From NCBI RefSeq assembly GCF_000449425.2, contig NZ_AVHW01000046.1:62001-126000 (forward strand): a stretch of DNA of 64,000 nucleotides, read 5' to 3'. Positions 14,531-60,378 of this stretch are shown here, piece after piece. The notes beneath the pieces are model-generated. The model ran no database searches and was not told the DNA's origin. It saw nothing but the letters and a program-made list of their open reading frames with translations. The translations under genes were made by a program, and so were the position numbers. Each line of letters starts with the position of its first letter. Positions within the stretch are counted from its first letter, which is position 1. This stretch comes from Clostridioides difficile CD160 (GTDB lineage Bacteria > Bacillota > Clostridia > Peptostreptococcales > Peptostreptococcaceae).

Positions 14531-14668
14531 TTGTTAAAATTATTGGACAAATTTTTTTATGATATTTTACTTAAATGTTGGTTGTTTACGATGTTATGGT
14601 TTTTTAGAGAACTTTTTACAAATTTCAAAGTGACTAAAAAATTTAAATTTCATAAAATATTTATGTAA
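14531..14668 (+). CDS. small hydrophobic/basic peptide ORF, 45 residues
   Basis: TTG start with a convincing ribosome site (GAGGTGATATAAC just before it). The peptide has an amphipathic start (MLKLLDKFFYDILLK), a tryptophan/phenylalanine-rich hydrophobic core and a lysine-rich C-terminus. That profile is shared by small membrane-active peptides and type I toxins, but it has no sequence match that I recognise. It could equally be a substrate or partner of the upstream radical-SAM-like protein. Coding status is supported only by the ribosome site and profile. Confidence 0.4.
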   Translation: MLKLLDKFFYDILLKCWLFTMLWFFRELFTNFKVTKKFKFHKIFM

Positions 14669-14669
14669 A

Positions 14670-14837
14670 AATCATATAAAATTCATATAGCATATGTATT
14701 ATATAGAGTATAGAAAGACTAGCTTAAAAAACCATAATATAATACCCTATTGTAATGATAACCCTCCCTCACATCCTCAAATAGAGTTATCATTACAAGA
14801 ATTAATCCATAAATTTAAAATTTATGGTTTTTTTTTA
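14670..14837 (+). ncRNA. duplicated structured RNA element, copy 1
   Basis: About 130 bases are shared with 15216-15348. The core is a 13-bp perfect hairpin (14750-14762 with 14786-14798) whose 23-base loop carries the pyrimidine-rich string CCTCCCTCACATCCTC. A conserved AT-rich block with TGTATTAT (extended -10-like) lies upstream, and a terminator (CCATAAA/TTTATGG plus nine T) closes the unit at 14807-14837. The stem differs from copy 2 at two positions and both changes keep pairing. This looks like a stand-alone small RNA with a CU-rich loop able to pair with Shine-Dalgarno sequences; that function is inference. Confidence 0.6.
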
Positions 14838-14955
14838 TTTAATTTGTTTTATTATATTAGAATATGATTTATTATAGAATATATACTAAGTAATATAGAA
14901 TACAGTAATTAAGTTTTTGACATGTTTTTAACTATACTAATAAGGAGGAGTATTT

Positions 14956-15177
14956 ATGAATGTAAATAATCACAAGTGCCCAGAGTGTGGTGAACACAGT
15001 AAAAAGTTTGAGATAGTAGAGGAAAATGAGGATTGTGTGACATTTGAATGTTACACGTGTGGAACTATATCTATATTGAAGTATTGTGAGAACTGTAAAG
15101 AATTTGTATTTGTAAATATTCCAAATAATGTGGAAACATATGAGTATCGTTGTGGAAAATGTAATAATAAGATTTAA
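14956..15177 (+). CDS. small zinc-ribbon protein
   Basis: 73-residue protein with four CxxC knuckles (CPEC, CYTC, CENC, CGKC), which would bind two zinc ions. No catalytic domain is present. ATG 14956 follows a near-perfect AAGGAGGAG. It sits exactly between the two copies of the structured RNA element, so its transcript could be read together with or be a target of those RNAs. Function unknown; such ribbons commonly mediate protein or nucleic-acid contacts. Confidence 0.8.
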   Translation: MNVNNHKCPECGEHSKKFEIVEENEDCVTFECYTCGTISILKYCENCKEFVFVNIPNNVETYEYRCGKCNNKI

Positions 15178-15215
15178 TATAATAAATATAGGTAATTTCA
15201 TATACCATTTATACA

Positions 15216-15400
15216 AATCTCATATAAAATTCATATATAAAATGTATTATATAAATATAGAAAGAACTAGCTTAAAACATAATATAATTACCCTAAAATT
15301 ATAATGACAACTCTCCCTCACATCCTCAAATTATAGTTGTCATTATAAAATAACTTGGCTGTTTCAAAATGTGAAATCATTTAGAAACAGCTTATTTTTT
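15216..15400 (+). ncRNA. duplicated structured RNA element, copy 2
   Basis: Second copy of the element at 14670. A 14-bp perfect hairpin (15299-15312 with 15335-15348) encloses a 22-base loop with CTCCCTCACATCCTC, nearly identical to copy 1 although the stems differ. The upstream block (CATATAAAATTCATATA, TGTATTATATA, CTAGCTTAAAA, ATAATAT and a CCCT) is also conserved. It ends in its own terminator: GCTGTTTC (15358-15365) with GAAACAGC (15384-15391) followed by TTATTTTTT. The two terminators are unrelated, so the conserved part is the promoter-like block plus the hairpin. Confidence 0.6.
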
Positions 15401-15408
15401 AAAAAAAA

Positions 15409-60230: not shown

Positions 60231-60378
60231 ATCTTATCAAGAGAGGCAGAGGGACTGGCCCTATGAAGCCCGGCAACCAGTATATTTTATTATACATTGG
60301 TGCTAAATCCTGCAGCAGTTATGCTGAAAGATGAGTATAAACCCGTCATATGGCTTGAGTTTATACTCAAGCTTTTTT
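60231..60378 (+). promoter_or_regulatory. SAM-I (S-box) riboswitch with terminator
   Basis: Aptamer hallmarks in order: CTTATCAAGAGAGGCAGAGG, GACTGGCCC, GAAGCCCGGCAACC, a variable P3 arm, TGGTGCTAAATCCTGCAGC and GCTGAAAGATGAG. A terminator hairpin follows (GAGTATAAAC at 60333-60342 with GTTTATACTC at 60359-60368, then TTTTTT). SAM binding would end transcription before hom. Confidence 0.92.

What the first reader, a model, noticed from the sequence alone, without database searches (positions are those of the whole stretch)
14670..15400. Paired small-RNA elements with compensatory stem changes and an identical CU-rich loop
Two copies of a ~130-base element flank a zinc-ribbon gene. The hairpin stems differ at two paired positions (G-C versus A-T, and T-A versus C-G), each with a matching change on the other arm, while the loop string CTCCCTCACATCCTC is unchanged. 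Each copy has the same promoter-like upstream block and its own unrelated terminator. That pattern is what selection on RNA structure and on loop sequence gives. The loop has two runs able to pair with Shine-Dalgarno sequences, so these may be twin trans-acting regulators.
Basis: partly seen in the sequence, partly recalled or inferred. Interest (0 to 1): 0.85.

Follow-up and report, generated by a model that had tools for sequence, protein, structure and literature searches.

The report
Multicopy small RNA with kinase-linked promoters
The two elements are members of a family of small RNA genes, six copies in this gut bacterium, that probably act as the output of one sensor-regulator pair encoded beside one of the copies; two relatives had been seen before as separate RNAs, but I found no paper on their kinship or their controller.

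Summary
The pair at 14.65-15.40 kb belongs to a Peptostreptococcaceae sRNA family with six copies in this genome. All 13 stem pairs covary, while a 15-base CU-rich loop and a leader are largely kept. All 57 distinct promoters compared have units at exact 11-bp steps before TATTAT, three TTCA-like and one looser, the layout of an OmpR-type response-regulator site. In 19 of 24 family genomes that hold both, one copy lies 70-110 nt behind the same OmpR-type regulator/kinase operon, and that operon has two such units upstream in 17 of 22 loci (13 of 16 genera). Two C. difficile 630 sRNAs, RCd6 and SQ1498, match two of the six positions and promoters, so transcription of members is already reported; I found no paper that links them. 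Best reading: a two-component system controls sibling sRNAs that pair with mRNAs through the loop, as LhrC and the csRNAs do. Shown: sequence, structure, linkage. Inferred: regulator binding, targets. Against: no excess of complementary sites, loop no better than shuffled loops on ribosome sites, overexpression of two members without seen effect, one genus keeps the RNA without the kinase, three genera lack the repeat before the operon.

The parts
14649..14702 (+). Promoter of copy A: four units at 11-bp steps, then TATTAT
   Evidence: 0 mismatches to the four-unit pattern; G000:C45:76649-76702
14711..14799 (+). sRNA copy A, modelled part: leader plus hairpin
   Evidence: R2, 101.8 bits;
14750..14798 (+). 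Covarying hairpin of copy A
14764..14778 (+). Conserved loop CTCCCTCACATCCTC, copy A
14804..14838 (+). Terminator-like hairpin and T run of copy A (bounds approximate)
   Evidence: not reported by the consensus scan
15197..15250 (+). Promoter of copy B: four units at 11-bp steps, then TATTAT
   Evidence: 0 mismatches; G000:C45:77197-77250
15259..15349 (+). sRNA copy B, modelled part: leader plus hairpin
   Evidence: R2, 83.8 bits;
15299..15348 (+). Covarying hairpin of copy B
15313..15327 (+). Conserved loop CTCCCTCACATCCTC, copy B
15356..15402 (+). Terminator-like hairpin and T run of copy B (bounds approximate)
   Evidence: not reported by the consensus scan

Best explanation
A family of sibling trans-acting sRNAs that is the output of one two-component system. 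An OmpR-type response regulator, encoded with its kinase directly upstream of one family copy in most of the genera seen, binds tandem TTCAYA-N5 units that take the place of a -35 box and drives the copies, and through two such units, in most genera, its own operon. Each RNA presents a CU-rich, nearly G-free loop on a stem of about 13 pairs, plus a single-stranded leader with UACCC, and pairs with a small set of mRNAs at or near their ribosome sites to lower translation. Shown: the family, the covarying stem, the kept loop, the tandem-unit promoters, the operon linkage, the two-unit site before the operon. Inferred: that this regulator binds these units, its sign (activation), the pairing mechanism and the targets. 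Reported by others: transcription of two RNAs that match family positions in strain 630.
For: All 13 stem pairs have changes on both sides in 47 distinct rows; 97.5% of cells paired against 76.2% in shuffles and 31-62% when slid. Loop CTCCCTCACATCCTC is exact in 5 of 6 own copies and in other genera, as in G075. In 57 of 57 distinct promoters TTC of the first unit and TT.A of the second are invariant at 11-bp steps; these units were not used for anchoring; the third is looser, the last was used for anchoring. Four-unit pattern with 0-1 mismatch: 52 matches in 71 family genomes, each just upstream of a model hit (my comparison). Copy 70-110 nt behind the kinase match on the same strand in 19 of 24 genomes that have both, 2 more at 1671 and 3260 nt behind inserted genes. 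Regulator = Response_reg + Trans_reg_C, kinase = HisKA + HATPase_c. TTCAY-N6-TTCAYA within 170 nt upstream of the regulator in 13 of 15 loci, 0 in 300 shuffles of that set, 0 of 101 other ORF starts of the same loci (pattern set); with seven further loci 17 of 22. Kinase and sRNA go together: both 24, kinase only 3, sRNA only 2, neither 8 of 37 genomes, Fisher p 1.6e-4; by genus 14/2/1/6, p 0.0017 (relatedness not corrected). RCd6 and SQ1498 at two of the positions, 12- and 10-fold lower in stationary phase.
Against: No regulator-DNA binding or mutant data. Genus g10 (G016, G036) keeps the RNA and its promoter, but its best kinase matches are E about 1e-35 to 1e-34 over the kinase core only. 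G012, G018 and G026 have the kinase and no model hit. The repeat before the regulator was not found in 5 of 22 loci (L192, L199, L194, L197, L214; genera g20, g23, g6), although g23 and g6 have sRNAs. Sites complementary to the loop are not in excess: 59 non-self sites against 73 for the reversed pattern; GAGGATGT-N0-15-ATG is rarer than its reversed control in 8 of 8 genomes. The loop is no better than shuffled loops at 56 ribosome sites. In strain 630 up to 100-fold overexpression of RCd6 and SQ1498 gave no detected effect on predicted target mRNAs or growth (PMC3649979). Identity of RCd6 and SQ1498 with this family rests on position, neighbours and promoter letters, not on the 630 sequence itself.
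Confidence: 0.7

Rival explanations
1. The RNAs act by binding a protein (a sponge for an RNA-binding protein) through the fixed loop, and several copies give the dose. The regulator link is the same.
For: The order of the loop letters is kept, yet gives no gain in generic ribosome-site pairing over shuffled loops and no excess of complementary sites. Several copies per genome fit a dose effect. Overexpression left predicted target mRNAs unchanged.
Against: Different copies and genera keep different halves of the loop: ACATCCTC in the kinase-side copies of Clostridioides and in two of the g2 loops, TCCCTCACA in g10 and G021 (g15), CTCCCTCA in the second G024 copy, which is more like alternative pairing seeds than one protein site. 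PMC11651100 cites RCd6 as Hfq-associated, but Hfq is a general chaperone.
Confidence: 0.15
2. Same sRNAs, but driven by another OmpR-type regulator such as PhoP (phosphate); the neighbouring kinase operon is only a frequent neighbour that shares the regulator.
For: The units resemble Pho boxes (consensus TTHAYA with an 11-bp step, recalled). The own pstS promoter has similar units and the same 9-bp gap to TATTAT (matched at 2 mismatches). g10 has the RNA without a close kinase. Three genera lack the repeat before the regulator.
Against: pstS units read TTAACA/TTTACA; the first sRNA unit has C at the third place in 57 of 57. A copy sits beside the operon in 19 of 24 genomes and the operon has the TTCAYA repeat in 13 of 16 genera.
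Confidence: 0.16
3. Cis-acting elements: attenuators or leaders of the next gene, for example copy A for the zinc-ribbon ORF.
For: Copy A ends about 118 bp before the zinc-ribbon ORF on the same strand, and the ORF is found in 6 of 7 congeners read.
Against: Each copy has its own promoter and terminator-like end; next genes differ and often face the other way; RCd6 and SQ1498 are discrete RNAs of about 100 and 150 nt on Northern blots.
Confidence: 0.04
4. A dispersed mobile repeat without a regulatory role.
For: Six dispersed copies; two very similar ones in opposite orientation about 30 kb apart in several Clostridioides genomes.
Against: Covariation in every pair with a kept loop, recurrent positions across species, no match in phages, plasmids (the window pair) or viral contigs (exact leader-plus-loop pattern).
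Confidence: 0.01

Closest known systems
RCd6 (CD630_n00170) and SQ1498 of C. difficile 630
   Same: RCd6 lies beside blaR and SQ1498 beside the kinase CD2113, as copies C27 and C82 do here; the published RCd6 hexamers and spacing (TTAAAT, 17 bp, TATATA) occur at copy C27, and the SQ1498 -10 (TATAAA) before copy C82. Both are 10- to 12-fold lower in stationary phase.
   Different: Described as two separate RNAs; in the sections and passages I read nothing says that they are related, that there are more, or which regulator drives them. The other neighbour of RCd6 (a PTS gene) is not that of copy C27 (a MecA_N-type PBP gene). The 630 sequence itself was not in hand.
csRNAs of streptococci (CiaRH regulon)
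   Same: Five sibling sRNAs driven by one response regulator through an 11-bp direct repeat (TTTAAG-N5-TTTAAG; PMC8186281, one passage).
   Different: Other repeat letters, four units instead of two, long hairpin with a fixed loop; no Rfam match here.
LhrC1-5 of Listeria (LisRK)
   Same: Five copies that need one two-component system, CU-rich UCCC motifs that bind a ribosome site, Hfq-binding but not Hfq-requiring (PMC4132741, abstract and passages).
   Different: LhrC has three redundant CU motifs and 111-114 nt; here one long loop plus UACCC; no Rfam match.
SpoZ and RgaRS of C. difficile
   Same: A two-component system that drives an sRNA (PMC10602386, passages).
   Different: VirR-like repeats; the sRNA is not described there as one of several copies in the passages seen; other regulator family (recalled).

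Membership tests
TCS-driven multicopy sRNA (a kind, not a homology family) | Several sibling sRNA genes in one genome | tested here: met
   Six model hits in G000 and in 5 of 7 congeners, seven in the two others, both drafts with copies at or near contig ends; most other genera have one or two
TCS-driven multicopy sRNA (a kind, not a homology family) | Shared regulator-like site in the promoters | tested here: met
   57 of 57 distinct promoters
TCS-driven multicopy sRNA (a kind, not a homology family) | Expression depends on the response regulator | not testable with these tools
   Only linkage and the repeat before the operon
TCS-driven multicopy sRNA (a kind, not a homology family) | Base-pairing with target mRNAs | tested here: inconclusive
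   No excess of sites; single candidates only
RCd6/SQ1498 | Position, neighbours and promoter of RCd6 and SQ1498 | tested here: met
   one neighbour of RCd6 differs
RCd6/SQ1498 | Sequence identity with the strain 630 genes | not tested
   The 630 chromosome was not identified in the collections used
LhrC | Rfam homology | tested here: not met
   No sRNA-family match at gathering score for the window or 10 family loci, none relevant at E up to 5; that Rfam holds an LhrC family is recalled
csRNA (CiaR) | TTTAAG-N5-TTTAAG promoter repeat | tested here: not met
   Units are TTCAYA-like
PhoP regulon | Units of the own pstS type (TTAACA/TTTACA) | tested here: not met
   C at the third place of the first unit in 57 of 57; pstS promoter read. 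PhoP binding itself was not testable

The most novel reading that the evidence does not exclude
A two-component system whose regulon is essentially RNA: the strict four-unit promoters found lie only in front of the sibling sRNAs, and the operon itself mostly has two units. Signalling output would be almost wholly post-transcriptional, and lineages would retune it by adding copies and by changing halves of the loop, or, in genus g12, by putting another CU-rich RNA behind the same kind of promoter.
Probability: 0.33. Interest if true: 0.8.

Novelty: new member of a known kind. Interest (0 to 1): 0.6.

Why it matters
It joins two orphan C. difficile sRNAs and four more loci into one family, points to a likely controller that no paper in my searches describes, and may explain why overexpressing single members showed nothing. 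It makes a direct test possible: one regulator deletion should silence six RNAs at once. It would add the Clostridia to the groups in which a two-component system works through sibling sRNAs.

Tried and rejected
Rfam: window at gathering score gave only a SAM riboswitch and a tRNA; the element region at E up to 5 gave three matches far below gathering score; ten family loci gave none.

PhoP as driver: considered first because of the 11-bp units; the pstS promoter has TTAACA/TTTACA units, so put second.

Regulon search with a two-unit pattern at up to 2 mismatches: 49 hits against 62 for the reversed control, uninformative; the four-unit pattern is specific.

Targets: the loop complement with up to 2 mismatches gave 7 sites besides the five exact loops, one of them the C82 copy itself; of the 6 others two lie at a ribosome site (pduL-like gene, L008; substrate-binding protein, L012). 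With up to 3 mismatches, 24 of the 59 non-self sites were held as loci and checked: six had a start codon in reach (L008, L012, L258, L269 ATG; L263 TTG; L270 GTG), without a control. GAGGATGT-N-ATG over 8 species: fewer than control; from its capped list I fetched 15 places and found an 11-bp match at the ribosome site of a dCache-PAS gene in G005, G006 and G007; in the own genome the same 11 bases lie where no ORF of 40 aa starts. Picked after looking, so a lead only.

Inversion between the two inverted copies: the flank comparison showed no clear swap; the script then stopped with an error and was not repeated.

Model R1 (7 pairs) was replaced by R2 (13 pairs, structure given by me from copy A); A2 is fitted to that structure, which favours it, hence the slide control.

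The zinc-ribbon count was off by a loose pattern and was redone.

Paper not held: the 2021 PNAS paper on C. difficile RNA and Hfq (identifier recalled).

Full report
OBSERVATION. The two copies are as described. Stem differences are compensated at two positions, the loop is identical, the upstream blocks are alike, the 3' hairpins are not. The loop control allowed 3 mismatches (11 of 100 shuffles had two or more sites) and does not test exact sites; the homologues settle the matter.

FAMILY. The own genome (G000, 4.76 Mb) has six copies: two in the window, C88 between dapF-like and threonine-aldolase-like genes, C27 behind a BlaR-type gene (Peptidase_M56 + Transpeptidase) and facing a MecA_N-type PBP gene, C29 at a contig end by a D,D-carboxypeptidase-like gene, and C82 behind a histidine kinase (names without a Pfam line are my reading of the translations). 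A covariance model from 22 sequences (A1; R2) hits 41 of 71 genomes of the family, 15 of 23 genera, at E up to 1e-3. In the order sample 26 of 198 genomes hit, all in this family (43 rows listed as same family); in the class sample 2 of 291, both in this family. All three searches used stricter filters, so weak members are lost: G075 has an exact loop and was missed. Named carriers of leader plus exact loop are assemblies titled Clostridioides difficile, Romboutsia weinsteinii, R. lituseburensis, R. sedimentorum, Faecalimicrobium dakarense, Peptostreptococcaceae bacterium VA2, Clostridium sp. CCUG 7971 and one Peptostreptococcaceae MAG (19 stretches). The window pair had no match in phages or plasmids, the leader-plus-loop pattern none in viral contigs. 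Whether G000 is C. difficile in the strict sense I could not tell.

STRUCTURE. 65 matches from 58 loci chosen out of those held gave alignment A2 with 47 distinct rows. Each of 13 pairs has double changes, 135 cells against 33.2 in shuffles, 97.5% paired. RNAalifold on the same alignment finds 12 pairs by itself, all with double changes. The alignment was fitted to the structure, but the slid controls (31-62% paired) use the same rows. Many rows are close relatives.

LOOP. Exact in 5 of 6 own copies. Variants mostly keep one half: TTCCCTTACATCCTC in C82, CCCACGAACATCCTC in g2 (another g2 genome has CCCACTAACATTCTC), TTCCCTCACACTCTT in g10 and G021, TCTCCCTCAAAATTT in a second G024 copy. The leader around CTAGCTTAAAAACATAATATAATACCC is also kept.

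PROMOTER. I aligned 57 distinct upstream regions on the last unit and TATTAT. The three upper units were not used for this, yet TTC of the first and T, T and A of the second are 100%; the third is looser (for example TATCTA in C27). Units are 11 bp apart and the last is 9 bp from TATTAT. This is the layout of tandem OmpR/PhoB-type sites (recalled). The published RCd6 promoter instead reads the overlapping TATATA as -10 with TTAAAT 17 bp before it. The four-unit pattern over 71 genomes gave matches in 45; the reversed control gave at most two per genome. All 52 matches with 0-1 mismatch lie just upstream of an sRNA hit by my comparison of the two lists. The pattern was made from these promoters and misses the C27 type, so this says that no other place in these genomes has so strict a site, not that no other gene is regulated. 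Matches with 2 mismatches include further copies and unrelated places.

CONTROLLER. In 12 of the 20 stretches the copy follows a regulator-kinase operon. A kinase search found 27 of 61 genomes at E up to 1e-60, all in the family. Of 37 family genomes in both searches, 24 have both, 3 only the kinase (G012, G018, G026), 2 only the RNA (G016, G036), 8 neither (Fisher p 1.6e-4; by genus p 0.0017; relatedness not corrected). Of the 24, the gap from kinase match end to model start is 70-110 nt in 19; in G001 and G004 it is 1671 and 3260 nt with inserted genes; in G021, G029 and G032 the RNA is elsewhere, in the last two before polA-like genes. The regulator's upstream 170 nt have two units in 13 of 15 loci first examined (not L192, L199); 300 shuffles gave none; four apparent control hits of 105 were the regulator itself from an alternative start, so 0 of 101 (the pattern was set after reading). 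Seven more loci gave 4 with and 3 without (L194, L197, L214), so 17 of 22 loci and 13 of 16 genera; the four new positives are all Clostridioides. The three genera without it (g6, g20, g23) are ones where the RNA was not found beside the operon. g10 lacks a close kinase; I did not search its regulator.

WHAT IS PUBLISHED. PMC3649979 (abstract, section 8 part 1, section 12 and passages read; supplement not readable) reports RCd6 between CD0469 and CD0470 blaR, about 100 nt, and SQ1498 between CD2112 and the kinase CD2113, about 150 nt; stationary/exponential ratios 0.08 and 0.1; overexpression without detected effect. The RCd6 hexamers and 17-bp spacing occur just before the leader of copy C27, and TATAAA before copy C82. 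Shared decline in stationary phase fits a shared regulator (inference). PMC7438776 (one passage) gives their start sites. PMC11651100 (passages) lists RCd6 as repressed in mouse infection and Hfq-associated. PMC10267692 (parts 1 and 2 of 4 of the results, and passages) does not name RCd6 or SQ1498 in its main text. Searches for RCd6/SQ1498, for kinase locus tags, some of them guessed, for sibling sRNA families in C. difficile and for two-component systems with sRNAs listed no paper that joins them; I judged most listings by title and abstract start only. Subscription papers are mostly not held.

HOW IT WORKS. A signal activates the kinase; the regulator occupies the units and recruits polymerase; several RNAs are made; the loop pairs with mRNAs. 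The last step is the weakest: the loop's order is conserved but not better than shuffled loops on ribosome sites of 56 window ORFs (mean -8.04 against -8.36 kcal/mol; 203 of 300 at least as good), and there is no excess of complementary sites. So the loop is not a generic anti-Shine-Dalgarno; it either has particular targets or binds a protein. Leads: a dCache-PAS gene with an 11-bp match at its ribosome site in three congeners (duplex -21.5 kcal/mol with the copy A loop in G006), a pduL-like gene and a substrate-binding protein in the own genome.

VERDICT. Real; ordinary in kind (csRNA-like, LhrC-like in how it probably works); new, as far as my searches show, as a family and in its link to this operon.

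Noticed in passing
L208 and L209 (G068, G069), about 1020-1270: In genus g12 a promoter of the same kind (2 mismatches) drives a short RNA without the hairpin, with ACCTCCC and ACCC motifs and a terminator-like end: perhaps a replaced output RNA.
   Followed up: partly
L210 and L211 (G068, G069), about 600-750: Behind the C-terminal part of another kinase-like ORF lies a promoter with similar units and a short RNA with CTCC motifs and a terminator-like end: possibly a second kinase-sRNA pair.
   Followed up: no
L190 (G001) and L191 (G004): Different genes lie between kinase and sRNA in two species (a hydrolase-like ORF; an ABC-transporter-like set), as if inserted at the same site.
   Followed up: no
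G006:C1:578269 (-) and 609895 (+); G000 C27 and C29: Two very similar copies in opposite orientation about 30 kb apart in several Clostridioides genomes; some draft contigs end in or near them. They could allow an inversion; my flank comparison showed no clear swap.
   Followed up: partly
L092, L100, L195, L196, L201, L205: A second recurrent home of the sRNA is just before a polA-like gene in genera g6, g11 and g23.
   Followed up: no
L082 about 2180-2310 (own pstS): The pstS promoter has TTAACA/TTTACA units and the same 9-bp gap to TATTAT, a likely PhoP site.
   Followed up: partly
L241, L251, L252: The start of a dCache-PAS protein gene in three Clostridioides species has 11 bp of perfect complement to the sRNA loop over its ribosome site.
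   Followed up: partly
L088 4418-5418 and similar loci: Two half-length ArsP_1-like permease ORFs run head-on toward the sRNA in several genera, with a small ORF of YtxH-like look (no Pfam match) behind them.
   Followed up: no
window 60231-60337: SAM riboswitch (Rfam RF00162, 89.1 bits).
   Followed up: no
window 14956-15177: 73-aa four-CXXC ORF between the copies, found in 6 of 7 congener loci (not L016); no Pfam match.
   Followed up: partly
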